A stretch of 64,000 nucleotides of DNA. Origin: Actinocatenispora thailandica (GTDB taxonomy: Bacteria > Actinomycetota > Actinomycetes > Mycobacteriales > Micromonosporaceae). The notes beneath the pieces were generated by a model, which was given only the letters and a program-made list of their open reading frames with translations, did not search any database and was not told the origin of the DNA. The translations under genes were made by a program, and so were the position numbers. Of this stretch, positions 3,840 through 29,427 are shown in pieces. Positions within the stretch are counted from its first letter, which is position 1; each line of letters begins with the position of its first letter. The stretch is taken from NCBI RefSeq assembly GCF_016865425.1, contig NZ_AP023355.1:124001-188000 (forward strand), given 5' to 3'.

Positions 3840-3890
3840 GTCACGGAGTCTCCCACGCCGGCGCCGCGGAGGGAACCGGCCGGTACGGCG

Positions 3891-4862
3891 TCACACCCGG
3901 GGTAGCGGCGGGGTCAGCCGGCCGTCGCCGCGACGCACGGTGATCGCGCCCGGCAGGTACACCGGGCCCTGGCCGTGCCAGTCGGTCAGTAGCGCGTCGA
4001 GCGCGGCCACGTGCCCGGCGGTCAGGTCGGTGCCGGGCGCCCCGAGCCGCCGCGCGTACGCGTGCAGCGCCCGGGTCCGCAGCGCCCGGGGTGCGGCGGC
4101 CAGCTCGGCGACCACCAGCCCATCGTCCTTGTCTACTGTGGACAGTAGTGCGCCGGCCTGCTCGTCCAGCAGCTCGCTGTCCGCCGCGACCAGCTCCGCG
4201 GTCCGCGCCAGGTTGCTGCGGAAACCCTTGCCCAGCAACGATTCCAGCTCGCCCAGCGCGGACCGCAGCCGGGACCTCGCGTACGCCGGGTCGGTGTTGT
4301 GCGGGTCCTGCCACGGCGCCAGGCCGAGCTGGTCGCAGGCCGCGATCGTCGTCGCGCGGGGCAGCCCGAGCAGCGGTCGCCGATAGCGTCCACGGACCGC
4401 CGGCATGCCGGCGACACCGCGCGGCCCGGCGCCGCGAGCCAGCGCCAGCAGTACCGTTTCGGCCTGATCGTCCCGGGTGTGACCGAGCAGCACCGTCGCG
4501 TCGTACCGGTCGGCCACCTCGTCCAGCGCCGCATACCGCGCGGCGCGCGCCGCCGCCTCCGGCCCGCCCGCCGCGCCGACCGTCACCGTCGCCACCTCGA
4601 CCGGGGCCAGCCCCGCCGCCGTCGCCCACCCGGCCAGCTCCGCCGCCCGCGCCGCCGACCCCGGCTGCAACCCGTGGTCGACGGTCACCAGCCCGGCCCG
4701 CAGCCCCGCCCGCGGTGCCACGAACCCGGCCGCCGCCGCCAGCGCCAGCGAGTCGGGGCCGCCGGAGCAGGCGACCAGCACCGTACCGCCGCCGGGCAGG
4801 TCGGCCAGCGACCGGCGCACCGCGACCCGGACCGCCGCCACCGCCGGCGGCAACCGCGCCAT
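3891..4862 (-). CDS. tilS: tRNA(Ile)-lysidine synthetase TilS
   Basis: 323 residues. It attaches lysine to C34 of the tRNA-Ile(CAU) anticodon using ATP, converting its reading from AUG to AUA. The N-type ATP pyrophosphatase P-loop SGGPDS is at residues 33-38, with VDHGLQPGS and GHTRDDQAETVLL motifs downstream. A short C-terminal substrate-binding region completes the compact actinobacterial form. The ATG at 4862 lies 6 bases after the stop of the DUF2342 gene, so the two are cotranscribed. In related genomes hpt and ftsH follow tilS directly; here they are about 25 kb away on the other strand. Confidence 0.95.
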   Translation of the reverse strand: MARLPPAVAAVRVAVRRSLADLPGGGTVLVACSGGPDSLALAAAAGFVAPRAGLRAGLVTVDHGLQPGSAARAAELAGWATAAGLAPVEVATVTVGAAGGPEAAARAARYAALDEVADRYDATVLLGHTRDDQAETVLLALARGAGPRGVAGMPAVRGRYRRPLLGLPRATTIAACDQLGLAPWQDPHNTDPAYARSRLRSALGELESLLGKGFRSNLARTAELVAADSELLDEQAGALLSTVDKDDGLVVAELAAAPRALRTRALHAYARRLGAPGTDLTAGHVAALDALLTDWHGQGPVYLPGAITVRRGDGRLTPPLPRV

Positions 4863-4868
4863 CGACGC

Positions 4869-5936
4869 TCAGATCTCGGTGCCGTGCACCCGGCGCAGCC
4901 AGGCGTCCGGGTCGGTGATCTCGGCCAGCCGGGGCAGCGTCTCCGCCGACTCCCACACCTGGTTGAACCCGTCCATGCCGACCCGGTCCACCAGCGCGGT
5001 CACGAACTTGTTGCCCTCCGCGTACTGCCGCATCTTCGCGTCGATGCCGAGCAGCTTGCGGATCACCCGCTCCACCGGGTTCGTGGTCTCCCGGCGCCGG
5101 TTGAACTTGCTGCGGATCTCCTCCACCGACGGCACCACCTGCGGCCCGACCGCGTCCATGATGTAGTCGGCGTGCCCCTCCAGCAGCGTCATCAGCGCGG
5201 TCAGCCGGTCGACCACCTCGCGCTGCGCCGGCGTCTGCACCAGGTCGAGAACGCTGGACCGGCTGTCCGGCGACCGCACCGCGTCGGCCAGCGACTCCAT
5301 CGCATGCCGCAGCCGGTCGGCCAGCTGCTCGGTGTCCGCCCGGGACGCGTCGACGAACTCGCCGACCTGATCCAGGAAGTACTGCCGGAGCCACGGCACC
5401 GCGGTGAACTGGGTGCGGTGGGTGACCTCGTGCAGGCACACCCACAGCCGGAAATCGCGCGGCGGCGCGCCGAGCTTGCGCTCCACCTCGACGATGTTCG
5501 GCGCCACCAACAGCAGGTTGCCCGGCTCGCCGGAGAACACTTCATATTGCCCGAGCACCTTGCCGGACAGGTAGCCGAGCACCGTACCGGCCTGCACGCC
5601 GGTCAGCCGGGACCCGACCTGCTGGGCGAACGCGCCCGGGACGCGCCCGGCCAGCGCCCGCTCCATCAGCGGGGTCATCACGTCGCGCAGGCCGCGCAGG
5701 TTCGCCGCGGCCCAGTCTGCCCTGTCCACCACCCGCACCGGCGGATGCCCGGCCGGTGCGGCACCGGCCGCCGAACCCAGGCCGGAAGTGGCGATGACGT
5801 GGCTGGCCGCCTCGTCGGTCAGCTGACGCAGATCGCCCACCACCTCGGCCGCCTCGTCGAAGCTGACCCGTGGACCCGCCTTCGAGATGGTCCCGGCCGT
5901 GCTGATGGCAAGATCCCAGTCCACAAACTGCGTCAT
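4869..5936 (-). CDS. DUF2342 / F420-associated-type zinc metalloprotease
   Basis: 355 residues starting at the ATG at 5936 (MTQFVDWDLA). The frame is open further upstream, but that extension is low-complexity and not protein-like. The zincin motif HEVTH is near residue 170 (CLHEVTHRTQF), followed by a conserved HADYIMD segment near 245. The family is also called coenzyme F420 biosynthesis-associated protein and is widespread in actinobacteria; its substrate is unknown. It sits between dacB and tilS, as in mycobacteria and streptomycetes. The 188-base gap to dacB contains no gene. Confidence 0.9.
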   Translation of the reverse strand: MTQFVDWDLAISTAGTISKAGPRVSFDEAAEVVGDLRQLTDEAASHVIATSGLGSAAGAAPAGHPPVRVVDRADWAAANLRGLRDVMTPLMERALAGRVPGAFAQQVGSRLTGVQAGTVLGYLSGKVLGQYEVFSGEPGNLLLVAPNIVEVERKLGAPPRDFRLWVCLHEVTHRTQFTAVPWLRQYFLDQVGEFVDASRADTEQLADRLRHAMESLADAVRSPDSRSSVLDLVQTPAQREVVDRLTALMTLLEGHADYIMDAVGPQVVPSVEEIRSKFNRRRETTNPVERVIRKLLGIDAKMRQYAEGNKFVTALVDRVGMDGFNQVWESAETLPRLAEITDPDAWLRRVHGTEI

Positions 5937-6124
5937 GGTCCAACGGTACGTGCCTGGCGGCCGGGCCGCCCAGCATCGACCCCCTCGTTCGTTTCGCGCT
6001 GCGGAGAAACGCCACCCCTGTTCGCCCCAGCGCGCCCGCGGCGATGGGGTGAGGACCACCTCTGTTCGCTGTTTTCGCCCCACGTGGGGGAAATGGGGGG
6101 CGGGGCTTCGCCGCCGGGTCACCG

Positions 6125-9100
6125 TCAGCGGCAGCCGCAGCCGACCAGGGTGGTGGCGGCCTCGTCGAGGGCGGCTTCGGCGCCACCCCAGTCGGTCACC
6201 CCCTCGGCCATCATCGCGAACGCGAGCAGCCGCCCGTCCGAGTCGAGTACCAACCCGGCAAGGGTGCTGGTGCCGTTGAGGCTGCCGGTCTTGGCGCGGA
6301 TCAGGCCGGCGCCCTTGGCGTCCCCGGCCGCCCGGGTGTACCGGTTCATCAGCGTGCCGGTGTAGCCGGCGACCGGCATCCCGGTCCACACCGGCCACAG
6401 CTTGGGATGCTTCCCGTCGGTGATCGACGTCAGCAGGCTGGTCAGGAACGACGGCGAGATCCGGTCCTTGCGGGACAGCCCGCTGCCGTCGTGCAACCGC
6501 AACCCGCTGGTGTTCAGGCCGAGCCGCTCGATCACCTCGGTGGTCGCCGCCGCGCCGCCGGCGAAGGTGGCCGGCTTGCCCTCGGCGAGCGCCACCTGGC
6601 GGGCCATCGTCTCGGCGATCACGTTGTCGCTGCGCTGCAGCATCATCTCGATCAGGTGCAGCAGCGGCGGCGACTTGACGGCACCGAGGCGGCGGGCGCC
6701 GGACGGCGCCGTGCCGTGCGCCACCGTGCTAGTGGGAGCGCCGATCAGCTGCGCCAGCTTGCGGCCGGCGTCCAGGTCCGGCTCGGTGCTGCGAACGGCG
6801 GTGGCCCCGTTCGGGTCGACCCGGCCGGCGTTCAGCATCACCGGCCGGATCGGTGCCGCGTCCCCGCCGGACACGATGTCGTCGTCCCAGCCCGGTCCGG
6901 TGCCCGCGCCGCCGAACAGCGACGAGTCCACCAGTACCCGGGTGGGCTTGGTGCCGTGCAGCGCCTTCTTGACCTGGTCCGCCAGCTTGTCCAGCCGGGC
7001 CGCCTCCGGGTAGGTGCTGTGGCCGTTGGTGGCGAGCGTCGGGTCGCCGCCACCGACCAGGATCACCTCGCCCGGCTTCGAACCGGCGACCACGCTGGTG
7101 GTCAGCCGGTAGGTGGGGCCGCGCACGGTCAGCACCGCCGACGCGGTGACCAGCTTCGTCACCGACGCCGGGACCTCCATCGCGTTCGGCGTCTTCCCGT
7201 ACAGGGCGCTGTTGGTCGCCACGTCGACCACCGAGACGGCGGTACGCGCGCCGAGACGCGGGTCGGTGAGCTTCGAGCCGAGCGCCCGCGCCACCCCGGC
7301 CGGCGTCGGCGCCGCCGCACCGGACACCGGCGCGAGTACCGGGCTCGGCGCCGCCGTGGACGGCGACGGGGACGGCGTCGCACCGTCGGCGAACAGCTTC
7401 TCCACCGGGCCCGGCCGGAACACCACCAGGCCGCCGGCGATCAGGACCAGGACCCCCAACGCGGCGAGCGCGCCGATCAGGATCCGGTTCGGCCGGCCCG
7501 GCCTGCTGCGGGCCGGCGCCGGTACCTCCGCCGGCGGTGGCGGCGGAGTCGGCGGACGTGCCGGCAACCGCAACGTCGGCGGCTCCACCGGTACCGGTGG
7601 AGCTTCCGCGTCAGCGGCCTGCCCAGCCGTACCGGGGTGCCCGGCACCGTCGGCCGCGCCCGGCCCGCTACCAGTAGCCGGCCCGGCACCGTTGGCCGCA
7701 CCCGGCCCGGCACCGTTGGCCGTACCGGGCCCGGCACCGTTGGCCGTACCGGGGTGTCCGGCACCGGCGCCGGCGCCGGCAGCGGCGTGCCCGGCCGCGG
7801 TCTCGCCGCCGGCCCGCCCGGTCGCGGTCTCACGGCTGGCTCGCCCGGGGGCGGTCTCCGCGCTCGCCCTGGGGATCGACCGGGTGGCGTCGGTGTCGAA
7901 CGGCGGTGCGGGCACCTGGTCGGTGCCGGCCGCGGGCACCTGCGCGGTGCCGGTGGCGGGTGCGTTTCCCGGCACCCGGGCGGTCCCGGCTGCCGGACGG
8001 AACTGGGGCGACGGGGCCGGCTCAGCCGGTGCCGGTGCCGGGTCGGCGGGCGGCGGGGTCGGGCCGGCGGGTGGCACCGATGCGGTACCGCGGGCCGGTG
8101 GCGCTGCCGGTGGCCGCACCGTCGCCCGCCCTCGTGGCGTCGGCGCGTCGGCGCCGGGTCGGAAGGGTGCCGGCCGGGCGATCGGTTCGGCCGGCGGCGG
8201 TGCACCGAGCGACGGCGTCGGCTCGATCGGCCAGTCCGGCCAGGCGGCTCGTCCGCCGGTCGACGGCCCGTCCTCGTCCGGTCGTCCCGAATCCGCGGAC
8301 CCGTCCGGTCGCGTGGGCTCGCCCGTCCCGTCCGCTCGCGCCGTCGTGGCCGCCTGGTCCGCTCGCGCCGGCTCGGCCGTCTGGTCCGCTCGCGCCGGCT
8401 CGGCCGTCTGGTCCGCTCGCGCCGACTCGGTCGGCTCGGGCGTCGGCGCCGCACCGGCCGACTCGTGCGTGCGCACCGCTTCGTCGGGTCGCCCGGGCTC
8501 GGCCGCCTGGTCCGCTCGCGCGGGCTCGAACGTCTCGGTCGGCTTCGCGGGCGCGGCGCCCGCCGAGTCGCCCGGTTGCGGAGCGACCGCCGGCCGTGCC
8601 GCGTCCCCGGGCTCAGCCGGCGCGAATCCCGCCGTCGTGGATCCGGTGTCGGGCGGGCGGGGCGCCGCTGGCTCGTTCGGGCCCGCCCAGCGAAGACCGG
8701 ACAGGTCCAGGATCTGCGTACTGTCGGTGCCGGCCGGTGGCGTACCGCTGGCGCGATCCTGCGCAGGGCCGTGCTCGGCCGGACCGCTCGTGGCGCGATC
8801 CGGCGGCGTATCGCGGTCCGCCGGAACATCCGTGGCGTGCTCCGCCGGTTCGGCGTGGGCCGCCTCGGCCGCAGCGTCATCCGGCCCGGCCGCGGCGCCA
8901 GCCGGGCCGGCTGCGGCGGCGGGGTCGTCCGGGCCCCCGCCCGCTGGCGTGGCCGCGAGGCCGTCCGTACCCGGTGCCGCTGCGTCCGTACCCGGTGCCG
9001 GTCCGTCCGTGCCGGCCGCGGCCGGGGGCGTGCCGGTGCCTGCCGCTGCGGAGGAGGGGGCGGCAGGCACCTCCGCCGTCGGTGCCGCGCTCGCGGCGGC

Positions 9101-9877
9101 GCCGGGGGCACCGTCCGCACCGGTGCCCGCTCGACCGCTGTCCGCAGCGCTGTCCGCTCGACCGCCGTCTGCACCGCTGTCCGCGCGATCGCTGTCCGCG
9201 CGACCGCTGTCCGCGCGACCGCTGTCCGCGCGACCGGTGGACGCGCCATCGGTGGACGCGCCGGTACCGGTGCCGTTGGCGCCGGAAGGATCCGCCTCGG
9301 TGCCGGTGGCCGGCTCCGTAGCGCTGCCCGGACCGGCGGTCGGCGGGGCGTCGGTACCCGGGTCGGCGTCGGTCGCCGCGCCGGCGTCCGGTTCGGCCGC
9401 GAGCACGTCGTCGGGCGCGGCGACGACGGCGGCGGTCGCTTCGGTGTCCGGTTCGGTGCCGGCCATGGCGTCGGGCTCGGTGGCTGGCGGGGGCGCGGCG
9501 GTCGCGTCCGGGGCGGCGGTCGGTTCGGTGGCGGCCTTGGCGTCGGGCTCGGTGGCTGGCGGAGGTGCGGTGGTCGCGTCCGGGCCCGCGTCCGTTTCGG
9601 GAGCCTCCGCGGTCGACGTCGTTTCGGGAGTCTCCGCGGCGGTGCGTTCGCCGGGCGTCGCATGGCCCGCGGTCGCGTCCGGCGGCTCCGGGCTCACGGT
9701 CGCCCCGGCGGGAGGCTCGACAGCTGGCTCGGCGGCGTCGGTGGCGGGGTCGGGACCCTTGGTCGGCGCGCCGTTTCCGGGGTGTTCTTTCCCGTTCTGT
9801 TCGGCCGGGGAGTTTATATCCGACGCGGGTGAAGAGTCCGAAGAATGGTCGTTAGGGTGTGTGCAATCTCCCGTCAC
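6125..9877 (-). CDS. dacB: PBP4-type D-alanyl-D-alanine carboxypeptidase/endopeptidase with a giant disordered N-terminus
   Basis: 1250 residues, far above the usual ~450-550 of the family. The C-terminal ~430 residues are a class C penicillin-binding protein that trims or cuts peptidoglycan stem peptides outside the membrane. Its catalytic motifs are ASVTK (SxxK, near residue 904), RSDNV (near 1083) and AKTGS (near 1196). One membrane helix lies near 797-820. Everything before it (~790 residues) is predicted cytoplasmic and low-complexity: Ala, Pro, Thr, Asp, Glu and Gly with RADSG-like and ARADQTAEP-like tandem repeats. The start is the GTG at 9877, supported by a GGGAGGGG ribosome site 3-4 bases upstream. 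The frame is uninterrupted, so the tail appears to be translated. It is divergent from ppa, the usual arrangement. Confidence 0.9.
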
Positions 9878-13101: not shown

Positions 13102-13269
13102 GATCACACGCTAGTGGCCGCCGTCACAATTCGGTACCCGTCGATGAGTTCGACCCGCCGATCAGGGCGCCCGCCCGGCCGGTGCCGGCCTCGACCCGGG
13201 CCCCCGGCGCGGCGCCGCCGCACCGGAAAATGCGTCGCGGAGCGGCAGCGGTACCGACACGATTCGGGC

Positions 13270-15919: not shown

Positions 15920-15993
15920 GCCGCCTTAGCTCAGTCGGCCAGAGCGACGCACTCGTAATGCGTAGGTCGTGGGTTCGATTCCCACAGGCGGCT
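15920..15993 (+). tRNA. tRNA-Thr (anticodon CGT)
   Basis: 74 bases with a complete cloverleaf. The acceptor arms GCCGCCT and AGGCGGC pair, the D-arm GCTC/GAGC is intact, the anticodon stem ACGCA/TGCGT encloses the loop CTCGTAA (anticodon CGT, reading ACG), and the T-arm GTGGG/CCCAC encloses TTCGATT. The discriminator is T, and CCA is not encoded. It is isolated between a minus-strand regulator and a hairpin terminator. Confidence 0.97.
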
Positions 15994-16011
15994 CAGCTTG
16001 CAACACAGGGA

Positions 16012-16047: not shown

Positions 16048-16091
16048 CGTCGCTCGGCGACACCGGGGAAGCGCGGCGGCGCCCGCTGGGA

Positions 16092-17273: not shown

Positions 17274-17322
17274 CGTGTTCTCCCTACTGTTCAGTGGCCT
17301 CCTGGTTGACGTCGAGCAACGG

Positions 17323-18710: not shown

Positions 18711-20080
18711 CCAGCGCCACCGACAAGCTTGTCGTACATCGGCTTGATCTTCTTCTCACCGGCGGTGAGCTGTTTCGCCACGTCGTCCAGTACTCCCTGC
18801 GACGGTCGATTGTCGCCGTAGATCTTCTGCAGCCCGCCGTAGATGATCGGCGAGGCGTTCTGCACGTAGGCATCGACCTCGTCCAGCCGGCCGGCGTGCG
18901 CCAGCTGTGCCACCGCGACGCCGCGGTTCGGATCCTTCTGCATCGCTTTCTCGTAGTCCGGCTGGTTCACGGCGGCCTTGACGACGGGCAGGTACCCGGT
19001 ACCCAAGGACCAGGTGGCCGACGATTCCGGCGAGGACAGGAACTTGATGACTTCCCAGGCGGCCTGCTTGCGTTCCTTCGGTACGCCCTTGAAGATCGAG
19101 AATCCCGCGCCGCCGGTCGGGACACCGCGGGTCACCTGGGTCGGTAGTGGGCTGCAGCCGACCTCGAACTTCGCCGCCTCGTAGGTGCCGGCCAGCGCGC
19201 CGGTGGAGTTCATGTAGGTCCCGACCAGACCGTTGTTGAAGTTCGTCCCGTACTCGCTGGCCAGAATGGCCATCTTGTCCTGGAAGATCAGCTTGCGCAT
19301 GAACTCCGCGCACTCGACCGCGCCGTCCTTGTTCACCACGACGTCGAGCCCGTTGGAAATTCGGCCACCGAACTCCCAGACGCTCGCCTCGAATTCCCAG
19401 CTGTCGCCGCCGGACAGCTCCGTCGCCTTCACCGGCTTGCCGGCGGCCTTCTGCTTGGTCAGTACCGAACCCCAGTCCCGCAGCTCGCTCCAGGTCTTGG
19501 GGCCGCGGTCGGGCAGTCCGGCCTTGGCGAACAGATCCCTGTTGTAGTACATGATGGGAGTGCTGCGCGCGAACGAGATCCAGTACGGTTTGTTCTTGAT
19601 CACGCCGGCGCCGTAGAGGTTCGCGTAGAACGAGGAGCTGAACTTCTCGTCCGCGTAACCGCTGAGATCCTCCAGCGTCTCGTTCAGGAAGAAGATCTGC
19701 CAGGCCGTCTGGCCGAAGGCCATGATGTCCGGTACCGCCTTGCCGCGGAGCGCGGCGGTCACCTTGGCGGTCGCGTCGAAGTAGTTCCCCTGGTACTGGG
19801 CCTGTGCATAGATCTCGTTCTGCGAATCGTTGAACTTCGCGACCAAGCCGTCCAGTACCTTCCCGGCCGAAGCGTTCCACGAACTCCAGAGCACGACCTT
19901 GTGCTTGCGGTTGCTGTACTTCTTCGGAACCTTGACGTCGACCTGCGCGAAGCCGTTCCCGCCGCCATGCGAGCACCCTGCGAGGGCTGGCGCCACGACG
20001 GCACCGGCGCCGACGAGCCCGAGCAGTGACCGGCGGCTCAGGGCCGCGCCGGATATCGGCGCGAGTCTCTGTTCTGACAT
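18707..20080 (-). CDS. ABC transporter extracellular solute-binding lipoprotein (family 1, UgpB-like)
   Basis: 457 residues. A twin-Arg-like ALSRRSLLG motif near residue 15 precedes a hydrophobic stretch and the lipobox LAGC near 35. The mature region has the family-1 sugar-binding fold (VLWSSWNASAGK, DIMAFGQTAWQIFF, PIMYYNRDLF, SSATWS). A GGAAAGGA ribosome site lies about 10 bases before the ATG. It feeds the two permeases upstream in the operon. The adjoining phosphodiesterase suggests glycerophosphodiesters or glycerol 3-phosphate as ligand. No ATPase is encoded in the operon; a shared MsiK-type ATPase is likely. Confidence 0.92.
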   Translation of the reverse strand: MSEQRLAPISGAALSRRSLLGLVGAGAVVAPALAGCSHGGGNGFAQVDVKVPKKYSNRKHKVVLWSSWNASAGKVLDGLVAKFNDSQNEIYAQAQYQGNYFDATAKVTAALRGKAVPDIMAFGQTAWQIFFLNETLEDLSGYADEKFSSSFYANLYGAGVIKNKPYWISFARSTPIMYYNRDLFAKAGLPDRGPKTWSELRDWGSVLTKQKAAGKPVKATELSGGDSWEFEASVWEFGGRISNGLDVVVNKDGAVECAEFMRKLIFQDKMAILASEYGTNFNNGLVGTYMNSTGALAGTYEAAKFEVGCSPLPTQVTRGVPTGGAGFSIFKGVPKERKQAAWEVIKFLSSPESSATWSLGTGYLPVVKAAVNQPDYEKAMQKDPNRGVAVAQLAHAGRLDEVDAYVQNASPIIYGGLQKIYGDNRPSQGVLDDVAKQLTAGEKKIKPMYDKLVGGAG

Positions 20081-20118
20081 CTGGTGGAAGTCCTTTCCGT
20101 GGTGACGGCGCGCGGGCA

Positions 20119-20979
20119 TCAGCCCTTGATTGCGCCGCCGGAGAAGCCCGCGACGATGTATCGCTGGGCGAGGAGGAAGACGACCAACATCGGCGCGGCG
20201 ACCATGACGGTGCCGGCCATGATGGCGCCCCAGTCGTTGTAGCCCTCCTGCGACTTCAGGTAGAGCAGTCCGATCGGCAGGGTGCGCATTTCGGTGGTCG
20301 TCGTGATGATGAGCGGCCAGATGAAGTCGTTCCACACCTCGATGACGGAGATCAGGCTGACGGTGATCATCATCGGGCGCGACATCGGAACGACCATTCG
20401 CAGCAGGATCCGCAGGTGGCTCGCCCCGTCCACCCGGGCGGCCTCGAACACCTCGCGCGGTAGCGCCATCATCTGCTGGCGCAGCAGGAACATGCCGAAT
20501 GCCGAGCCGGCGCCGGGGACGATCAGGCCCGCGTAGGTGTCCACCCAGCCGAGATCGGAGGCGGTCAGGTAGTTGGTGAGCAGGGTGATCGTGCCCGGCG
20601 TCATCAGGGTGCCGAGCAACAGCAGGAAGATGAACCGTTTGAACGGGAAGGGCAGGAACGTGAACGCGTAGGCCGAGCCTGTCGCCAACACCATCTTGAT
20701 CACCGTGCCGACGACGGTGACGATGATCGAGTTGACGAAGAAGGATCCGAACGGTGCGTCGTGCCAGGCGTTGGTGAAGTTCGACCAATGAAGCTGGCGG
20801 GGGATCCACTGCAACGGGAACTGGTAGATCTCGCCACTCGGTTTCACGGCCGAGCTGAACAGCCAGTACAGCGGCATGACGAACACGGCGGCGATCAGCA
20901 CCAACGCCGCGTACAGCAGGATCTTGCGCACCGCGGTCCGGCCCGCGGGATTCGGTCGGGTGGATGTTTCGGCCCTCAT
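20119..20979 (-). CDS. ABC sugar-type transporter permease (MalG/UgpE-like)
   Basis: 286 residues with six membrane segments. The EAA loop EVFEAARVDGASHLRILLRMVVPMS is near residue 190, where the ATPase docks. The ATG at 20979 overlaps the stop of the upstream permease gene by 4 bases. A conserved periplasmic VFVMPLYWLFSSAVKP segment follows the first helix. It forms the import channel with the companion permease for the substrate delivered by the lipoprotein. Confidence 0.93.
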   Translation of the reverse strand: MRAETSTRPNPAGRTAVRKILLYAALVLIAAVFVMPLYWLFSSAVKPSGEIYQFPLQWIPRQLHWSNFTNAWHDAPFGSFFVNSIIVTVVGTVIKMVLATGSAYAFTFLPFPFKRFIFLLLLGTLMTPGTITLLTNYLTASDLGWVDTYAGLIVPGAGSAFGMFLLRQQMMALPREVFEAARVDGASHLRILLRMVVPMSRPMMITVSLISVIEVWNDFIWPLIITTTTEMRTLPIGLLYLKSQEGYNDWGAIMAGTVMVAAPMLVVFLLAQRYIVAGFSGGAIKG

Positions 20980-22019
20980 TGGTAGGTCACTCTCCGCTCT
21001 CCGTACCGGGCCAACAGAATGGTGATCGTCAGGAGAACGACCAGCATGACCATTGCGGCGGCGGCGGCCAGTCCGGCATTCGAGGCCTGGAACGCCTGTT
21101 GATAGATGAACCAGCTCAGCGTGGTCGAGGACTGTCCCGGGCCGCCGCCGGTCATGACTGCCGTGACGTCGTACGCCTGGAACGCGCCGATGATCGATGT
21201 CACGACGAGGAAGTAGGTGACCGGGGACAGCAGGGGGAACGTCACGTGGCGGAACTGCTGCCAGCGGTTCGCGCCGTCCAGCGTGGCGGCCTCGAAAAGG
21301 TCGGTTGGCAGGTTCTGCATTCCGGCGACGTAGATGATCGCGCAGAACCCGATGCCCTTCCACAGGTAGACCATCACCAGCGCGTAGAGCGAATAGTGCG
21401 AGCTGGTCGTCCACTGCGGCGACGAGATTCCCAGCGGTTCGAGAAGGGCGCGCAGCAGCCCGAAACTCGGATCGAGCATGAACAGCCACAGCGCTGCGAT
21501 CGCCGCGCCCGAGACGATGTGTGGGGCGAAGCTGAGGGTTCGTACCAGTCCCCGACCGGCCAGCCGTTGGTTCAGGACCAGGGCCGTGGCAAGTCCGCCC
21601 ACGATGGCGCCCACCACGATGAGGACGACGAACTTCGCGGTGTTCAGCAGGACGTGGCCGAAGTCCGCACTGGTGAAGAGCTGGCGGTACTCATCGAGGC
21701 CGACCCAGCTCGGGGCCGGGGAGATCATGTCCCACGAGGTGAAGCTCAGATAGAGGTTGTAGATCACCGGCCAGTAGGAGAAGACCAGGATGAGCGCCAG
21801 GTTGGGGCCGGCCAGGGCGGCGAACAGCAGGTACTCCTTGCCGTGCCGACGCAGCGCGCGACGCAACCGCTGCCGCGGCGGGTTCGTCACGGGAGCCGGT
21901 GACCGGGTTGTGCGGTCGGCCAGGGCGCCGGTCATCGGCTGGCCAACCATGGTGGTCCGTTGCCGGCCCGCTCGAACATCGTTGCTCCTCGGTTCATGCA
22001 GCGCCTCGTTATCGCTCAT
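20976..22019 (-). CDS. ABC sugar-type transporter permease (MalF/UgpA-like)
   Basis: 347 residues with a ~55-residue polar, arginine-rich N-terminus and six membrane segments. The EAA motif (LFEAATLDGANRWQQFRHVTFPLL) is near residue 240. This is the first gene of the operon, divergent from the SorC-type regulator with 105 bases between starts. The ATG at 22019 is the longest option. Internal ATGs (MVGQP, MTGAL) could be the true start, since no ribosome site is clear. Confidence 0.92.
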   Translation of the reverse strand: MSDNEALHEPRSNDVRAGRQRTTMVGQPMTGALADRTTRSPAPVTNPPRQRLRRALRRHGKEYLLFAALAGPNLALILVFSYWPVIYNLYLSFTSWDMISPAPSWVGLDEYRQLFTSADFGHVLLNTAKFVVLIVVGAIVGGLATALVLNQRLAGRGLVRTLSFAPHIVSGAAIAALWLFMLDPSFGLLRALLEPLGISSPQWTTSSHYSLYALVMVYLWKGIGFCAIIYVAGMQNLPTDLFEAATLDGANRWQQFRHVTFPLLSPVTYFLVVTSIIGAFQAYDVTAVMTGGGPGQSSTTLSWFIYQQAFQASNAGLAAAAAMVMLVVLLTITILLARYGERRVTYQ

Positions 22020-22112
22020 CTGATCGGTTGGTCAGCGTCGAGTCCACCGATTAACACACACCTGCGCGATCGCGGGCAAGATGCGCGGCGCCTTGTTGTG
22101 GCAACCGCGCGC

Positions 22113-22118
22113 TAAAGT
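22113..22118 (+). promoter_or_regulatory. -10 element TAAAGT, probably leaderless start
   Basis: TAAAGT ends 6 bases before the ATG of the SorC-type regulator and no ribosome site is present, so transcription should begin at or next to the start codon. The same ten bases, GCGCTAAAGT, precede the proline dehydrogenase gene at equivalent spacing. Confidence 0.6.
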
Positions 22119-22124
22119 GCTCAG

Positions 22125-23117
22125 ATGAGCGAATCGAGGCACGGCCCGGATGCGCCCCGGGTGGATCGCCGACGACTGCGCGGCAAGCACAGCCAGGCGC
22201 TGCTCATGGCTCGGGTCGCGCGACGCGCCTACCTCGACCAACGCACCAAGGTGCAGATCGCCGAGGAGCTCGGCCTCTCCAGGTTCCAGGTCGGGCGGTT
22301 GCTGGAGCGGGCGCGAGAGACCGGATTGGTCCGCATCGAGATCGGGCTGCCGGACGACGTCGAGTTCGACCTGTCCGGGCAGTTGCAGGAGCGCTTCGGG
22401 CTGCGCTACTGCGCGGTGACCGAAGCGCCCGACGAGTCGCTCCAGGCGCTGCGCACCAGCGTCGGCCAGGCGGCCACCGCGCTGCTCGAAGAGGTCGTCA
22501 CCGACCGGGACGTGTTGGGCATCTCCTCGACCCGAGCCCTGATGGGACTGGCCGAACCGCCGTCCGGCTTCAGCAGGTGCCCCGTCGTGCAGATCACCGG
22601 CGCGGTGTCCCGGACGGATGCCTGGGACGTGATGGAGGCCGTGCGACGGTTCACCCGGGTCGGCGGCGGTCCCGCCTACCTGTACTACGCGCCGATGCTC
22701 TGCCCCGACAAATCGGACTCAGGCATCTACTCCAAGCAGCCCGACTTCGTTCGCTGCCAACGCCTGTTCGGGGAGCTGACGGTGTGCGCGCTCGGCATCG
22801 GCGCCTGGGGTGACGGGCTGTCGACGGTCCATGAGGCCGCCTCGGAACGCGATCGCGGGATCGCGGACGAGTCCGGAGCGGTCGCCGAGGTGGTCGGCTT
22901 GCTGCTCGACCAGGACGGCCGCCGACTGAACACCCCACTCGACGGCAGAATGATCGGCATCTCGGAGGCGCAGCTTCGATCCGTGCCGACTCGGATCGGC
23001 ATCGCGTTCGACGCCCGCAAGAGCGAAGCCGTGCGCGCCACGCTCGCGTCCGGCCTGATCAACGGCATCGTGATCGACCGCGGCCTGGCCGAGGCGATCC
23101 TCGTCGAGGAGGCCTGA
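22125..23117 (+). CDS. SorC/DeoR-type sugar-binding transcriptional regulator
   Basis: 330 residues. The N-terminal helix-turn-helix (KVQIAEELGLSRFQVGRLLERA, residues ~47-68) follows a basic lead. Residues ~85-330 form the SorC effector domain, which binds phosphorylated sugars or polyols (GISSTRAL, VQITGAV, CALGIGAWG). It is divergent from the ABC/GDPD operon and is its likely local regulator; by family, a phosphorylated intermediate would be the inducer. The start appears leaderless. Confidence 0.9.
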   Translation: MSESRHGPDAPRVDRRRLRGKHSQALLMARVARRAYLDQRTKVQIAEELGLSRFQVGRLLERARETGLVRIEIGLPDDVEFDLSGQLQERFGLRYCAVTEAPDESLQALRTSVGQAATALLEEVVTDRDVLGISSTRALMGLAEPPSGFSRCPVVQITGAVSRTDAWDVMEAVRRFTRVGGGPAYLYYAPMLCPDKSDSGIYSKQPDFVRCQRLFGELTVCALGIGAWGDGLSTVHEAASERDRGIADESGAVAEVVGLLLDQDGRRLNTPLDGRMIGISEAQLRSVPTRIGIAFDARKSEAVRATLASGLINGIVIDRGLAEAILVEEA

Positions 23118-23222
23118 CCCGGGCCCGGCGCACCGCGGCCGGGGCCCGCCGCCTGCGGGGGGCTTCGCGCCCACCCGCGCGGGCGCCTCCCGCCCCACCG
23201 GCCACCGTTGCCCCCGGGCCGG

Positions 23223-23990
23223 TCAGGGCCGGCCGGGCGCGGCCAGCAGCCGGTGGCGGTGCAGGTGACGGCCGGGGGTGCGCGAGCTGAGCTTGACGTC
23301 CCGGACGCGCAGCACCTTCGTCGGTGACATCCAGCCCTGCGACGGTTTGTGCAGCGCCCACCCGTCGCCGAGCGTCACCGCCGCGTGCTGCACCAGGCCA
23401 TCCTGGCTGCGCCACACCAGTACCGTGCCGAGGTCGTCGTCGCTGCCGCCGGGCCGGGTGCGGTCGGCCAGCCACGCCTCGAACGGCTCCCGCTGCATCC
23501 AGATCCGTTCCGCGCCGGCCACCCCGGCGGCCGCCAGCACCGCACCGAAGCAGTTCGGCCCGCTGTGCGCCGGGAACCGCCCGGCCAGCGCCCGCGCCCC
23601 CGGCAGGACGGCACCGGCCGCGCGCCAGGTCGCGGCGGCCACGTCGCGGTGGCGACTCGCCCGCCGGCCGAACTCCACGTACCGGACGACCCGGGCCTCG
23701 GTCCGGTCCTCGTCGCGGGACGGCCAGCGGTGCGCGGCGGGCTGCCCGGCCCGTACCGCCGGCGGCAGCAGCCTGGCCTCTCGCCTGGTCAGCCAGGCGA
23801 CCGCGGCGCCGGCCGGCTGGTAGAGCTCGAACGAGTCCCGCAGCTCGGGCGTGAGCCGTGCCGGCTCGTCGGCCAACCCCAGCGTGGCCGCGACCTCGGG
23901 CGGCACCAGGTACGGCTGGGCGTCCGGCATCAGCCAGCCACGCCAGCGGTGCCGCAGGTCGGCGTCCACGTCGATGCCCAGTACCCGCAT
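23223..23990 (-). CDS. Hypothetical cytoplasmic protein with NlpC/P60-like Cys-His segments
   Basis: 255 residues from the ATG at 23990 (MRVLGIDVDADLRH), no signal peptide. In the second half, GPNCFGAVLAAAGV (Cys near residue 146) is followed by DLGTVLVW and then QHAAVTLGDGWALHKPSQ (His near residue 204). The spacing and strand pattern resemble papain-fold NlpC/P60 or CHAP-type catalytic cores. A cysteine hydrolase or transferase is possible but unproven. It is alone between the SorC regulator and a divergent SGNH lipoprotein. Confidence 0.65.
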   Translation of the reverse strand: MRVLGIDVDADLRHRWRGWLMPDAQPYLVPPEVAATLGLADEPARLTPELRDSFELYQPAGAAVAWLTRREARLLPPAVRAGQPAAHRWPSRDEDRTEARVVRYVEFGRRASRHRDVAAATWRAAGAVLPGARALAGRFPAHSGPNCFGAVLAAAGVAGAERIWMQREPFEAWLADRTRPGGSDDDLGTVLVWRSQDGLVQHAAVTLGDGWALHKPSQGWMSPTKVLRVRDVKLSSRTPGRHLHRHRLLAAPGRP

Positions 23991-24204
23991 GCCCGCCGAC
24001 GCTACCGATGGGCGATTCCGGCGTCGATCGAGTTGCCCGGTCCGCGGCGTCAGCCGCCCCGGCGGTACCGGCGGGCCACCGGTACGAACGGGGGAACCCG
24101 TGCGGGTGGGTGACCCGGCGGCGTGGTGCGAGGTTCCGTACCGGGTGTGTCCGGATGCGGGTGAGGGCAGGCACAAACGTTCGCGATCACGGAGGGCTTC
24201 CCCC

Positions 24205-24928: not shown

Positions 24929-24930
24929 CC

Positions 24931-24972: not shown

Positions 24973-25098
24973 GCCGCGGTCGCCCGCCGGAACCGACCGG
25001 CAGGTATCTTCGGCGCGTCATGACCTTGCGGGTTGGTGCCCGTGTCGGCCCACCGAGCCGGCCACCGACCCGCCTCACCACGCGAGCTGGGACGGCCG

Positions 25099-25329: not shown

Positions 25330-25378
25330 ACCGGGTCGGGCGGCACCCGGGCGCGGGGCCCGCTCCCGCTGGCGCGGG

Positions 25379-26230
25379 CTACTCGTACTGCTGCTCGTAG
25401 GCCTGGCGGGAGCCGCAGACGCTGGCCCGGCTGCACGAGCAGCGGCTGCCGTCGGCGTCCAGCCGGACGGTGACCGCGTCGCGCGGCACGCTGTGCCCGA
25501 CGACCCGGCCCGGCCCCTGCTCGGTGTCGACCCGGCTGCCGACCGCCGGCGCCGTCTCCTGGAACCGCTGGTACAGCGGGTGCTCGTACTTCAGGCAGCA
25601 CATCAGCCGGCCGCACGCGCCGGAGATCCGCAGCGGGTTGAGCGGCAGGTCCTGGTCCTTGGCCATCCGGATGGTCACCGGTTCGAAGTCGCGCAGGAAC
25701 GTGGCGCAGCACAGGTCGCGGCCGCAGGAGCCGATCCCGCCCTGGACCCGGGCCGAGTCGCGCGCGGACAGCTGCCGCAGCTCGACCCGGCAGCGCAGCG
25801 TCGCGCCCAGGTCGCGGACCAGCGACCGGAAGTCGACCCGGTGCGGCGCGGTGAAGTAGATGGTGGTGTGCGCGCCGTCCTCGACCGACCCGGTGCTCGG
25901 CTCCGGACCGGTCAGGTGGTCGACGGCGACCACCTTCATCGGCAGCTCGTGCTCCCGGATCAGCTTCTTCGCGGCGACCTTCGCCTCGGCCTTGCGTCGC
26001 CGGACCAGCGCGTCCCGGTCCAGGTCGGCCGCCCCGGCGGGGCCGGCGAGCCGCGGAAACCCGGCGGTGTCCTCGCTGACCCACTGCGGTGCCCACACGC
26101 ACTCGGCGACCTCGGTGCCGTCCTCGGTCGGGACCAGCACCTTGTCGCCGACCTGCGGCGTGAACTCGCCGGGGTCGAGGTAGTAGAGCCGGCCGTACCG
26201 GTTGAAGCTGACCGCGCAGAGCATGCCCAC
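25379..26230 (-). CDS. PSP1-domain (RicT/YaaT-like) protein
   Basis: 283 residues. The PSP1 core carries paired cysteine motifs CGRDLCC (near residue 170) and CGRLMCC (near 207), plus a C-terminal CSCSRASVC cluster. In Bacillus RicT, such cysteines help a protein complex bind an iron-sulfur cluster that supports RNase Y-dependent RNA processing. Actinobacterial homologues are conserved but little studied. The start is the GTG at 26230 or the ATG at 26224 (MLCAVSFNRYG). Confidence 0.9.
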   Translation of the reverse strand: MGMLCAVSFNRYGRLYYLDPGEFTPQVGDKVLVPTEDGTEVAECVWAPQWVSEDTAGFPRLAGPAGAADLDRDALVRRRKAEAKVAAKKLIREHELPMKVVAVDHLTGPEPSTGSVEDGAHTTIYFTAPHRVDFRSLVRDLGATLRCRVELRQLSARDSARVQGGIGSCGRDLCCATFLRDFEPVTIRMAKDQDLPLNPLRISGACGRLMCCLKYEHPLYQRFQETAPAVGSRVDTEQGPGRVVGHSVPRDAVTVRLDADGSRCSCSRASVCGSRQAYEQQYE

Positions 26231-26513: not shown

Positions 26514-26882
26514 CTACCCGCGGCCGCCGAACGGGTCGGCGCCGAACTCCTGCTCGGCCAGCTTCTGCCGGGCCCAGTCGGCCGCGGTACGCGCCTGCTG
26601 GCAGGCGCCCAGGACGGTCCGGGACAGGTCCCGTGCGGTGAGGGTGCGCAGCGCCGCGTCCGCGATCCGCACGTCGTGGAACGCGCCGTCGGCGCCGACC
26701 ACGACCTCCACCAGCCCGTCGCCGGAGCGGATCGTCACGTCGGCGTGCGCGACCCGGTCGGCGAGTTCGGTCCGGCGCCGTTCCAGCCGCCGGTAGTGCG
26801 CCACCGCCTCCTCGATCCACGCCTCGTCGATCTCGCGTGGCGGTGCCGTCGTCGCGGGCTCGTGGTCAGTCGTGGCCGGCAT
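26514..26882 (-). CDS. YbaB/EbfC-family nucleoid-associated-like protein
   Basis: 122 residues from the ATG at 26882. A helical N-terminal segment (IEEAVAHYRRLERRRTELADRV) leads into the YbaB beta sheet (VTIRSGDGLVEVVVGADGAFHDVRI) and a C-terminal helix ending DPFGGRG. The start overlaps the preceding gene by 17 bases. In actinomycetes such YbaB-like proteins are often encoded beside WXG100/type VII-like genes rather than dnaX/recR, as here. Confidence 0.8.
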   Translation of the reverse strand: MPATTDHEPATTAPPREIDEAWIEEAVAHYRRLERRRTELADRVAHADVTIRSGDGLVEVVVGADGAFHDVRIADAALRTLTARDLSRTVLGACQQARTAADWARQKLAEQEFGADPFGGRG

Positions 26883-27627
26883 GGAACGCTCCCGAGTCGG
26901 TACCGGTGTCGTGGTCCGGGGTGCGCGCGGTCGGCAGCGCCGGCCGCGCGCTGGTGGTGGCCGGGTGCAGCTCCCGGCCGGCGGCGAGCACGGGTCGCAG
27001 CGCCGCGAAGCAGGCGGCGGCCAGGTCGGCGGCCGCGGCGGCACCGGCCGGCGCCCGGTCGAGCTCGTCCGCGCTGCCTGGCTCGGTAGCCGCCGGGCCG
27101 CCGCGCAGGGTGACCGCGGCCGGCGAGTTGCCGTACCGCAGGAAGAAGGAGACCAGCGCGGCCCGCAGCTCGCCGTACCAGCGGGCCAGCCGGGCACCGT
27201 GCTCGGCGGTGTCGAGCAGCTGCGCCGGCAGTTCGGCGCCGAGCGCGGCCGACACCGACGCCCACACCGTCTGGTACGCCCGCTGCCCGGCGCCGGACCA
27301 GCGCAGGTCGTCGCCGTCGGCCAGGACCGGTTCGGCCGCCGCGAGCACCGCCGTACGGTGCCGGGCCAGTTCGACCGAGCGCTGCCACACCGGCTCCGGA
27401 TCGGTGTCCACGATGGAGCGGGCCAGCGCGCCGGGCAGCGCGCGAAACTCGCGCAGATCGGCGACGACCGGATGCTGCGGCGGCACACCGTACCGGCGCA
27501 GGGCGCGGTCGACCGTGGCCAGCAGGTCGGTCACCACCTCGGCGAGCCCGGCCAGCCGATCGGGCGGGAGCGATGCCGGCCGCCAGTCCGGCTGCTGCGT
27601 TCCGTATCGTGCCGGCCCGGCGATCAC
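26866..27627 (-). CDS. Helical type VII-associated protein of unknown function
   Basis: 253 residues from the GTG at 27627, which overlaps the stop of the upstream WXG100-like gene (GTGA). Mostly Ala/Leu-rich helices, with a W-S-G-A-G turn near residue 106 (DDLRWSGAGQRAYQTVW) that resembles the WxG turn of ESX proteins. The C-terminus is Pro/Ala/Thr-rich and disordered. No enzyme motif is visible. Lying between a WXG100-like protein and a YbaB protein suggests a role with them. Confidence 0.65.
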   Translation of the reverse strand: MIAGPARYGTQQPDWRPASLPPDRLAGLAEVVTDLLATVDRALRRYGVPPQHPVVADLREFRALPGALARSIVDTDPEPVWQRSVELARHRTAVLAAAEPVLADGDDLRWSGAGQRAYQTVWASVSAALGAELPAQLLDTAEHGARLARWYGELRAALVSFFLRYGNSPAAVTLRGGPAATEPGSADELDRAPAGAAAAADLAAACFAALRPVLAAGRELHPATTSARPALPTARTPDHDTGTDSGAFHAGHD

Positions 27628-27944
27628 CGGGTCGGTTCCCCGGCGCGCCGGATCACCCGCGCGGTTTCCTCGTCGGCGTCGCGGTAGCGGCCGGCGGCGG
27701 TGCGCAGGTCGGTTCCGAGGTCGGCCAGCCGGTCGGCCGTGCCGGCCGCCGCCTCGTGCGCCTGCCACACCACGACGCCCCAGCGCCGGTGCAGGTCGGC
27801 GGCGACGTCACCGAGCGAACCGGGTGCCGTGCAGCAGGCCGGGGCGGGCCCGGTGTCCGGGCCGGCGGCGGCGCGGACCTGGTCGGCGGCGGCCATCAGC
27901 CGGCCGCCGAAGGTACCCAGGCCGACCGAGCCAGACTCGCCCAC
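27624..27944 (-). CDS. WXG100-like small helical protein
   Basis: 106 residues. Two long helices are separated near RRWGVVVWQAHEAA, and the C-terminal YRDADEE matches the YxxxD/E signal seen on type VII substrates. The GTG at 27944 has GAGGAG 7 bases upstream. It is the first gene of a three-gene cassette (WXG-like, helical protein, YbaB), and no EccC-type ATPase is in the window. Confidence 0.65.
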   Translation of the reverse strand: MGESGSVGLGTFGGRLMAAADQVRAAAGPDTGPAPACCTAPGSLGDVAADLHRRWGVVVWQAHEAAAGTADRLADLGTDLRTAAGRYRDADEETARVIRRAGEPTR

Positions 27945-28084
27945 CGCGCACTCCTCACGCCCGCGTCGTCACCGTCCGCGCCCCCGCGAATGATCGCTGA
28001 GCGTACGGAAACGGTTGCGGCAGGCGCCACCCTTTGTAAATTCCCGACAGAACACTTGACAAGTCGTCAGATGCGGACGATCGG

Positions 28085-29059
28085 TCAGTCCTGGCCGCAG
28101 AAGCGGCGCCGGTACGCGACGGGTGCGGTCCCGAGCCGCCGGGTGAAGTGGTGCCGCAGTGCGGCCGCGTTGCCGAAACCGGCCCGCCGGGCGATCTGCT
28201 CCACCCCCAGCTCGGTCTCCTCCAGCAGGGTGCGCGCCAGCAGCACCCGCTGGCCGACCAGCCAGTCGTGCGGGGTGGCACCGGTCTCCGCGCGGAACCG
28301 GCGGGCGAACGTCCGGGGCGCCAGGTGCACCCGCGCGGCGAGCGCCTCCACCGTCAGCTCCTCCGCCAGGTGGGCCTGCATCCAGGTCAGCAGCGGCTGC
28401 AACGACTCGGCCGCCGCGGCCACCGGGACCGGCGTCTCGATGTACTGGGCCTGCCCGCCGTCCCGGTGCGGCGGCACCACCATCCGCCGGGCCAGCGCGG
28501 TGGCGACCGCCGAACCCTGCTCCTGCCGTACCAGGTGCAGGCAGGCGTCGATGCCGGCGGCGGTACCGGCGCTGGTCAGGATCGGCCGGTCCTCGACGTA
28601 GAGCACGTCCGGGTCGACCTTCGCGGTCGGGTAGCGGGCGGCGAGATCCGCCGCGTACATCCAGTGCGTGGTGCAGCGGCGGCCGTCCAGCAGCCCGGCC
28701 TCGCCCAGCACGAACGCGCCCGAGCAGACGCTGACCACCCAGGCGTTCCGGGCCGCCGCGGCGCGCAGCGCCGCCGTCAGCTCGGCCGGAACCGGCAGCG
28801 GGCCGGCCGGCGGGTTGCTGGCGTGGCCCATCGCGGGCACCGCCACCACGTCCGCGTCCGCCAGCGGGGCGAGGTCGTGGTCCGGCACGATCTGGTACCC
28901 GGACTTGCAGCGCACCGGCCGCCCGCCCGGCGAGCAGAGCGCGAACTCGTACGGCGGGAAGCCCTGCGCGGTGCGGTCGACGCCGAACACCTCGCAGATC
29001 ACGCCCAACTCGAAGGCGGCGACGCCGTCCAGGGCCACCGCCGCGATCGTGCGCAGCAT
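28085..29059 (-). CDS. GlxA-family transcriptional regulator (DJ-1/PfpI plus AraC domains)
   Basis: 324 residues. Residues 1-180 form a DJ-1/PfpI-like domain with the nucleophile elbow VSVCSGAFVLGEAGLL near residue 112. Residues ~215-324 form an AraC domain with two helix-turn-helix motifs (LTVEALAARVHLAPRTFARRF and GVEQIARRAGFGNAAALRHHF). Members control amino acid or polyamine catabolism and stress genes; the target is unknown. It is divergent from the second DSRD microprotein. Confidence 0.92.
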   Translation of the reverse strand: MLRTIAAVALDGVAAFELGVICEVFGVDRTAQGFPPYEFALCSPGGRPVRCKSGYQIVPDHDLAPLADADVVAVPAMGHASNPPAGPLPVPAELTAALRAAAARNAWVVSVCSGAFVLGEAGLLDGRRCTTHWMYAADLAARYPTAKVDPDVLYVEDRPILTSAGTAAGIDACLHLVRQEQGSAVATALARRMVVPPHRDGGQAQYIETPVPVAAAAESLQPLLTWMQAHLAEELTVEALAARVHLAPRTFARRFRAETGATPHDWLVGQRVLLARTLLEETELGVEQIARRAGFGNAAALRHHFTRRLGTAPVAYRRRFCGQD

Positions 29060-29219
29060 GACCGCCAGCGTACCGGCAGAAAATCGATGGTCAATGGCAT
29101 TCCTGCCACTGGGCGACGGTCCGGCATGGGCCGAACATGGACCTGTCGATGGCCATCGGCAGTGCGGAAATCCCACCGGCGCTCGCTGCAGCGCCGGACC
29201 GACCCGGAAGAGGATCGTC

Positions 29220-29363
29220 ATGCATGCACTGCTGTTCATCGTCGTCTTCGCGCTCGCCCTCGGCGCCGCCCAACTGCTCGGCTGGACCCGGGACAGCCGG
29301 GACTCCAACGACTGGCACGCCCCGGAGGAGAGGCCGGACCCCCGGCACAGCCACGCCGCGTGA
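29220..29363 (+). CDS. Single-pass microprotein with a DSRDxxDWH motif (copy 2)
   Basis: 47 residues. A membrane helix (residues 2-20) is followed by [21 protein letters not shown] and a His-rich end. The ATG at 29220 has GGAAGAGG about 6 bases upstream. It shares the LLG-[WF]-T-[RH]-DSRD-x-x-DWH-x-P core with the 63-residue protein at 14666-14857. It lies directly beside the inferred inversion breakpoint upstream of hpt. Function is unknown. Confidence 0.75.
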
Positions 29364-29427
29364 CCAGGGCCGCGGCCGTGCCCACCCCGGCGGCGCCACG
29401 ATCGGCGCCGTCGGGCAGGCTGGATAC

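What the first reader, a model, noticed from the sequence alone, without database searches (positions are those of the whole stretch)
3840..29427. Conserved ppa-dacB-tilS-hpt-ftsH order broken by an apparent ~25 kb inversion
In mycobacteria and streptomycetes the order is ppa (divergent), dacB, DUF2342, tilS, hpt, then ftsH-folE nearby on the same strand. Here tilS-DUF2342-dacB are on the minus strand and hpt-ftsH-folE are on the plus strand about 25 kb away. Inverting everything between the tilS end (about 3.85-3.89 kb) and the hpt upstream gap (about 29.37-29.42 kb) would put tilS back directly in front of hpt in the right orientation. A DSRD microprotein gene lies at the right breakpoint and a perfect palindrome lies within 0.8 kb of the left one.
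Basis: partly seen in the sequence, partly recalled or inferred. Interest (0 to 1): 0.72.

Follow-up and report, generated by a model that had tools for sequence, protein, structure and literature searches.

The report
Old inverted gene block in Actinocatenispora

Summary
The layout is real: tilS-DUF2342-dacB on minus and hpt-ftsH-folE on plus, 24.6 kb apart, in a single-contig 7.43 Mb genome. It is no misjoin: both other congeners with the two genes on one contig share it. Outside the genus, hpt follows tilS on the same strand in 22 of 30 family members and 23 of 23 members of other families with both genes on one contig. So inversion is supported, but it is fixed in the genus. The flipped block is tilS...ppa...PSP1...EspC-like frame (3.89-27.94 kb); its main genes keep the order of other families, where holB precedes PSP1. 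holB is now about 112 kb from hpt, so one inversion is not enough: three are needed, and every shortest path flips exactly this block (12 of 24 paths if one weak marker's sign is changed). The breakpoints share no repeat beyond chance. The nearby palindrome is a young MITE-like insertion. Ordinary in kind, modest interest.

The parts
3195..3839 (-). Sua5/YrdC/YciO gene, present left neighbour of tilS (outside the block)
   Evidence: Pfam PF01300; next to tilS in G003 and G001 and, with a 4.4-kb insert, in G002; best matches elsewhere in the other genomes
3840..3890 (.). left breakpoint interval (between Sua5 start and tilS stop)
   Evidence: tilS end faces AraC or hpt in canonical relatives
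3891..4862 (-). tilS, first gene of the inverted block
   Evidence: Pfam PF01171/PF09179
4869..5936 (-). DUF2342 / Zincin_2 metallopeptidase
   Evidence: Pfam PF10103; alignment A1
6125..9877 (-). dacB (S13 D,D-carboxypeptidase) with a long low-complexity N-terminal extension (true start not determined)
   Evidence: Pfam PF02113; open frame of 1250 aa
10078..10602 (+). ppa, inorganic pyrophosphatase (start approximate)
   Evidence: Pfam PF00719
11464..13107 (-). AMP-binding enzyme, ancestral neighbour of ppa
   Evidence: Pfam; next to ppa in G040 of another family
13114..14565 (+). MFS_3 transporter, also ancestral to this block
   Evidence: Pfam; 1.1-1.2 kb from ppa in G010 and G028; about 15 kb from PSP1 in G013
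15920..15994 (+). tRNA-Thr(CGT), strand reversed relative to PSP1 compared with G048, G049 and G013
   Evidence: ARAGORN
16092..24176 (.). lineage-specific 8-kb set (beta-propeller-like, HAD, GDPD, solute-binding protein, permease, sugar-binding regulator) inside the block; limits approximate
   Evidence: Pfam; found in G003 and G001, not in G002
25379..26230 (-). PSP1-domain gene, marker linking this end of the block to holB in relatives
   Evidence: Pfam PF04468; positions in 44 of 61 genomes
26514..26882 (-). YbaB/EbfC-like gene
   Evidence: Pfam PF02575 on the overlapping open frame; 50% identical to the gene between holB and PSP1 in G013
26866..27944 (-). two ESX/EspC-like open frames (26866-27768, 27624-27944), last genes of the block
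   Evidence: 33% identity to the G013 gene between YbaB and PSP1; sub-threshold EspC match for the second
27945..28084 (.). right breakpoint interval (corrected)
   Evidence: left side belongs with the holB-PSP1 cluster, right side (AraC) with hpt in relatives
28085..29058 (-). AraC-type regulator with DJ-1/PfpI domain, outside the block
   Evidence: Pfam; between tilS and hpt on the opposite strand in 53 of 75 canonical named loci
29220..29363 (+). DSRD microprotein, ancestral neighbour of hpt, not a breakpoint feature
   Evidence: homologues between AraC and hpt in G022, G036, G024, G023, G011, G006 and G013; 20 of 20 weak-to-fair hits in named loci lie just upstream of hpt
29428..29994 (+). 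hpt
   Evidence: Pfam PF00156
30331..32487 (+). ftsH
   Evidence: Pfam
32552..33202 (+). folE
   Evidence: Pfam PF01227
3083..3139 (.). palindromic MITE-like insertion in CTAG, unrelated to the inversion

Best explanation
A chromosomal block of about 24 kb, running from tilS (stop at 3891) through DUF2342, dacB, ppa, the AMP-binding and MFS genes, PSP1 and YbaB to two ESX-like frames (27944), was inverted before the species of the genus (Actinocatenispora) diverged. One breakpoint fell between tilS and the AraC-DSRD-hpt-ftsH-folE group, the other between holB and the YbaB/PSP1 cluster. Shown: the gene orders, the sharing of the layout in the genus, the ancestral neighbours on both sides of the right breakpoint, and the lack of repeats at the breakpoints today. 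Inferred: that the block was flipped as a unit; that at least two larger inversions of flanking DNA also occurred and erased the reciprocal holB-tilS junction, leaving tilS beside Sua5 and holB about 112 kb from hpt; and that the mechanism was repeat-independent joining or recombination at repeats since lost.
For: Layout in all 3 genus members with both genes on one contig, own genome included (gaps 24.6, 23.5, 26.6 kb; on the coordinates). The fourth, A. comari, is split over contigs but shows Sua5-tilS on one and ppa...PSP1-YbaB-AraC-hpt on another. Other families: hpt after tilS on one strand in 23 of 23. PSP1 lies upstream of tilS on the tilS strand in G049, G048, G038, G053, G054 and G039 (17-124 kb); it follows holB by 0.2 kb in G049 and 1.5 kb in G048. 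AMP-binding beside ppa in G040, MFS beside ppa in G010 and G028. AraC and DSRD beside hpt in canonical relatives. All shortest inversion paths from the outgroup order to the genus order contain a flip of exactly this block: 3 of 3 with the X1 (subtilase) marker, 6 of 6 without it.
Against: holB is not next to tilS, as a single inversion predicts. If the sign of the X1 marker, a subtilase from a paralogue-rich family, is wrong, only 12 of 24 shortest paths contain the block flip and the best ancestor is no longer the outgroup order itself. tRNA-Thr inside the block is on the other strand relative to PSP1 than in G048, G049 and G013, and the YbaB/ESX genes are in a different order than in G013, so the block was also reworked internally. 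AraC between tilS and hpt was found in 7 of 12 canonical family stretches and 53 of 75 named loci, not in all. Inversion-only models ignore transposition; allowing it on four blocks, other ancestors tie.
Confidence: 0.8

Rival explanations
1. Assembly misjoin in this genome.
For: Reads were not available.
Against: Same layout in two other congeners in separate assemblies, G003 (single contig) and G002.
Confidence: 0.01
2. No inversion: tilS-DUF2342-dacB-ppa and hpt-ftsH-folE were separated by insertion of unrelated genes (10.6-29.4 kb) plus a flip of a few genes.
For: An 8-kb set (16.0-24.2 kb) is lineage-specific, not found in A. rupis, so part of the spacing is insertion.
Against: AMP-binding, MFS and PSP1, which lie between the two groups, are ancestral neighbours or linked genes of ppa elsewhere, and the YbaB/PSP1 cluster now faces AraC in reversed orientation, which insertion does not explain.
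Confidence: 0.06
3. Different route: large inversions or a transposition of the hpt...holB region (about 112 kb), not of the 24-kb block, produced the junctions; or a tandem duplication of the whole neighbourhood with different losses in each lineage.
For: hpt...folP...topA...holB run in one direction both here and in G012 and G013. With four blocks only, the reversal-only median differs. With the G012/G013 order as family root, several ancestors tie.
Against: Adding flanking markers (lysS, subtilase) makes the outgroup order the only best ancestor when the G036-type order is used as family root, with the block flip on all shortest paths. One match each of tilS, hpt and PSP1 in G000, so no duplicate remains.
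Confidence: 0.13

Closest known systems
Bacterial chromosomal inversions (general class; recalled)
   Same: A block keeps most of its internal order but is reversed relative to its flanks, and is shared by related species.
   Different: No inverted repeat was found at the breakpoints, and additional rearrangements removed the reciprocal junction.
tilS-hpt-ftsH-folE cluster of Actinomycetes and tilS-hprT-ftsH of Bacillus subtilis
   Same: Same genes; hpt-ftsH-folE still together.
   Different: tilS is separated from hpt-ftsH by 24.6 kb and divergent. In B. subtilis tilS and hprT overlap upstream of ftsH and their proteins together activate ftsH (PMC8152036, passages seen, citing Lin et al.).
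Other local rearrangements at the same place in the family
   Same: The order around tilS and hpt is altered.
   Different: hpt alone is reversed in 6 genomes (one clade); tilS-DUF2342 alone is reversed in G018 and G019; ppa-dacB is reversed in G012.

Membership tests
Chromosomal inversion | Block has the same internal order and strands as in outgroups | tested here: met
   tilS, DUF2342, dacB, ppa, AMP-binding, MFS, PSP1. Exceptions: tRNA-Thr strand, YbaB/ESX order, 8-kb lineage-specific set
Chromosomal inversion | Block reversed relative to flanking genes | tested here: met
   Relative to AraC-hpt-ftsH-folE
Chromosomal inversion | Both new junctions join the predicted ancestral neighbours (YbaB side to AraC, tilS to holB) | tested here: not met
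   YbaB side next to AraC is met; tilS is next to Sua5 instead of holB. Hence filed as an inversion plus further rearrangements, not as a single clean inversion
Repeat-mediated inversion | Inverted repeats at both breakpoints | tested here: not met
   Longest shared match 11 nt, chance level; the palindrome has no second copy in the genome
Assembly misjoin | Layout absent from independent assemblies of close relatives | tested here: not met
   Layout present in G002 and G003
MITE (palindrome 3083-3139) | Terminal inverted repeats, target-site duplication, dispersed copies | tested here: met
   51-bp insertion relative to G003 and G001 with CTAG at both ends; in 9 loci chosen for fetching, end pairs start 148-149 bases apart in 6, 96 in 1 and 38-39 in 2; matches in 13 of 121 family genomes, own included. 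Transposase that could move it not identified

The most novel reading that the evidence does not exclude
The tilS-hpt junction, kept intact in the other actinomycete families sampled, has become a rearrangement-permissive spot in this family: changed at least three separate times (this block, hpt alone, tilS-DUF2342 alone), perhaps because in part of the family the AraC/DJ-1 regulator and the DSRD microprotein came to lie between tilS and hpt and ended a need for tilS and hpt-ftsH to be co-transcribed or co-regulated. The genus would then be a natural test of whether TilS and Hpt still jointly control ftsH.
Probability: 0.25. Interest if true: 0.5.

Novelty: new member of a known kind. Interest (0 to 1): 0.24.

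Why it matters
It shows an otherwise conserved housekeeping cluster being broken in one genus and kept so, with 0 of 23 breaks in genomes of other families against three kinds of break in this family. If the tilS-hprT control of ftsH known from Bacillus subtilis (PMC8152036, passages) exists in actinomycetes, these bacteria either have lost it or manage it in trans. Otherwise it is routine genome evolution.

Tried and rejected
Shared inverted repeats at the breakpoints: none beyond chance. Palindrome as driver: rejected, because it is a clean insertion lacking at that site in G003, G001 and G002, which share the layout (no exact 22-mer in loci of congeners). DSRD gene as breakpoint marker: rejected. 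Tandem duplication with differential loss, considered after four adjacencies seemed to form a ring: set aside once lysS and subtilase positions were added and the outgroup order became the only best ancestor with the G036-type family order; with the G012/G013 order as family root three ancestors tie (two without the subtilase). Literature: Actinocatenispora + genome, 12 of 26 papers listed; Micromonosporaceae + inversion + synteny, 2 of 2 listed; three of tilS/hpt/ftsH/gene order, 12 of 16 listed; no title is about this; tilS + hprT + ftsH, 4 of 4 listed; DSRD or microprotein, 6 of 1,161 listed, nothing relevant among them. Only listings and starts of abstracts were seen, except passages of PMC8152036. 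I make no claim that the inversion is unpublished. Not done: read coverage, long-read checks, structure prediction.
Full report
WHAT WAS CHECKED. The window is G000:C1:124001-188000 of a single-contig 7,426,695-base genome. Gene identities were confirmed with Pfam: Sua5 3195-3839(-), TilS 3891-4862(-), Zincin_2/DUF2342 (start taken as 5936)(-), S13 peptidase DacB from 6125(-), pyrophosphatase to 10602(+); Hpt 29428-29994(+), FtsH, FolE. So the observed layout is real.

HOW UNUSUAL. tilS was found in 58 of 61 genomes and hpt in 60 of 61. I tabulated the 58 genomes holding both, best match each. Of 23 genomes from other families, 23 have hpt downstream of tilS on the same strand, gaps 21-1069 bases. 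Of 31 other family members with both genes one is split over contigs; of the remaining 30, 22 have hpt downstream on the same strand (gaps 104-7099), 6 have hpt downstream but reversed, and 2 are divergent with gaps of 7.0 and 7.7 kb. In the window's genus 3 of 3 with both genes on one contig, own genome included, are divergent, 23.5-26.6 kb apart; the fourth is split over contigs. One scan of named genomes kept 80 loci of 367 relatives; 75 show tilS and hpt on the same strand and 5 show no hpt. Of those 5, A. comari, Micromonospora sp. MH99, M. craterilacus and M. rosaria are cut by contig ends, and the fifth is A. rupis, where Sua5 instead lies 4.4 kb from tilS.

NOT A MISJOIN, NOT RECENT. 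G003 (single contig) and G002 carry the same order from folE through hpt, AraC, YbaB, PSP1, MFS, AMP-binding, ppa, dacB, DUF2342 and tilS to Sua5, on the reverse strand of their contigs. In G002 an 8-kb set of genes (16.0-24.2 kb) was not found, and a 4.4-kb insert lies between tilS and Sua5. The right-edge sequences printed for the four species are visibly alike, as are the left edges of G000, G003 and G001.

WHERE THE EDGES ARE. In many family members an AraC-type regulator with a DJ-1/PfpI domain lies between tilS and hpt, reversed: in 53 of the 75 canonical named loci and in 7 of 12 canonical unnamed family stretches (G006, G011, G013, G022, G023, G024, G036; not in G004, G012, G017, G025, G031). 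In G011 the two matches are 51 bases apart. A DSRD-like peptide lies between AraC and hpt in G022, G036, G024, G023, G011, G006 and G013 (E-values 4e-6 to 0.01), and all 20 named loci with a hit below E = 0.5 have it just upstream of hpt (many of these E-values are weak alone, the constant place is the evidence). Left of AraC lie the EspC-like frame, the ESX-like frame, YbaB and PSP1. In G013, G024 and G036 a YbaB gene, a gene similar or similarly placed to the ESX-like ones, and PSP1 follow holB. So the right breakpoint is in 27945-28084 and the left one in 3840-3890.

THE BLOCK IS ANCESTRAL IN ORDER. PSP1 was found in 44 of 61 genomes. In G049, G048, G038, G053, G054 and G039, of other families, it lies 17 to 124 kb upstream of tilS on the same strand. 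It follows holB by 0.2 kb in G049 and 1.5 kb in G048 and by more in G038 (about 12 kb) and G040 (about 2 kb). The AMP-binding gene is next to ppa in G040; the MFS gene is 1.1-1.2 kb from ppa in G010 and G028. In G010 the small gene that adjoins PSP1 here (25033-25329) is 24 kb beyond ppa on the matching strand. The same relations hold inside the window block if it is read in reverse. Exceptions: tRNA-Thr is on the strand opposite to PSP1 here and in G002 and G003, but on the same strand in G048, G049 and G013; YbaB and the ESX-like gene are in a different order than in G013.

MORE THAN ONE EVENT. A single inversion between tilS|AraC and holB|YbaB predicts holB beside tilS. Instead topA and holB lie at 243.6 and 265.2 kb of the chromosome, same strand as hpt, holB about 112 kb to its right, and tilS abuts Sua5. 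The genes from hpt through folP and topA to holB run in the same direction here, in G012 and in G013. In G036, G006, G022 and G004 lysS follows hpt at 36-37 kb while PSP1 is 0.95-1.6 Mb away on the other strand (circularity assumed for G022 and G004). In G012, G013, G000 and G003 lysS is 0.56-1.4 Mb away and reversed (circularity assumed for G000). G034 fits neither type: lysS 42 kb downstream, PSP1 2 Mb away on the same strand. With six blocks on a circle, the outgroup order (taken from G048) is 3 inversions from the genus order and 2 from the G036-type order, and it is the only best ancestor for that pair; with the G012/G013 order as family root three ancestors tie, or two without the subtilase marker. 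All 3 shortest paths (6 of 6 without the subtilase) include an inversion of exactly the tilS...PSP1 block. If the subtilase's sign in the genus is reversed, 12 of 24 do and the best ancestor changes. That marker has many paralogues, so I rest on the run without it. A four-block version, before the extra markers, gave a different best ancestor, and ties once transpositions were allowed.

MECHANISM. No long repeat is shared by the two edges. The palindrome at 3083-3139 is a 51-bp insertion relative to G003 and G001, with CTAG at both ends, and is lacking at that site in G002 too. Its ends recur in other family genomes (13 of 121 with matches, own included); in nine loci that I chose to fetch, pairs of ends start 148-149 bases apart in six, 96 in one and 38-39 in two. 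The whole palindrome has no other copy in this genome. It is a MITE-like element younger than the genus and cannot have caused an inversion shared by the genus. Repeat-independent joining, or repeats since lost, is the most likely cause; this is inference.

CONTEXT. A tree of 30 genomes from up to seven proteins (G030 and G034 by PSP1 alone) puts the genus as sister to the main family group (support 1.0 for the pair, 0.936 for the main group); the six genomes with hpt reversed form one clade (1.0) and G018+G019 another (1.0). Thus the tilS-hpt junction was changed at least three times in the family. The tree uses genes of this very locus and has missing data. In Bacillus subtilis TilS and HprT together activate ftsH and their genes overlap just upstream of it (PMC8152036, passages); I have no evidence whether this holds in actinomycetes. 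VERDICT: a genuine, old inversion of an ordinary kind, with corrected edges and extra rearrangements; modest interest.

Noticed in passing
window 3083-3139: Palindromic MITE-like element (ends CTAGGGCGTGTCTGGTGGATC) inserted in CTAG; longer forms, ends starting 148-149 bases apart, are dispersed in the family (13 of 121 genomes with matches, own included, up to 18 matches in one genome). Transposase not identified.
   Followed up: partly
window 14735-14857 (-): A second DSRD-type microprotein, 61% identical to the one at 29220, beside a MarR-GNAT gene; also present in G001, G002 and G003.
   Followed up: partly
window 6125-9877 (-): DacB open frame of 1250 aa with a roughly 800-residue Ala/Pro/Thr-rich low-complexity N-terminal part. 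The gap between ppa and the catalytic part is also over 2 kb in G003, G002, G023 and G031, 1.2 kb in G036 and 240 bases in G048.
   Followed up: partly
window 15920-24176: tRNA-Thr(CGT) with an 8-kb lineage-specific gene set (GDPD, HAD, solute-binding protein, permease, sugar-binding regulator) behind its 3' end, found in 3 of 4 genus members, own included; no integrase family among the Pfam hits.
   Followed up: partly
window 33274-48700: In G048 and G040 folE is next to folP; here and in G012, G013, G024 and G036 a stretch of about 13-21 kb lies between, with an AAA_10 ATPase (VirB4-like by recall), an M23 peptidase and small proteins conserved in the family. Perhaps a family-wide secretion-type module.
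   Followed up: partly
G007, G010, G014, G015, G016, G028: A clade in which hpt alone is reversed between tilS and ftsH, and in which no PSP1 relative was found.
   Followed up: partly
G000:C1:3950100-3950732: A second Sua5-type gene, 49% identical to the one next to tilS, in an open frame of 515 codons; counterparts in G001, G002 (frame 338) and G003.
   Followed up: no
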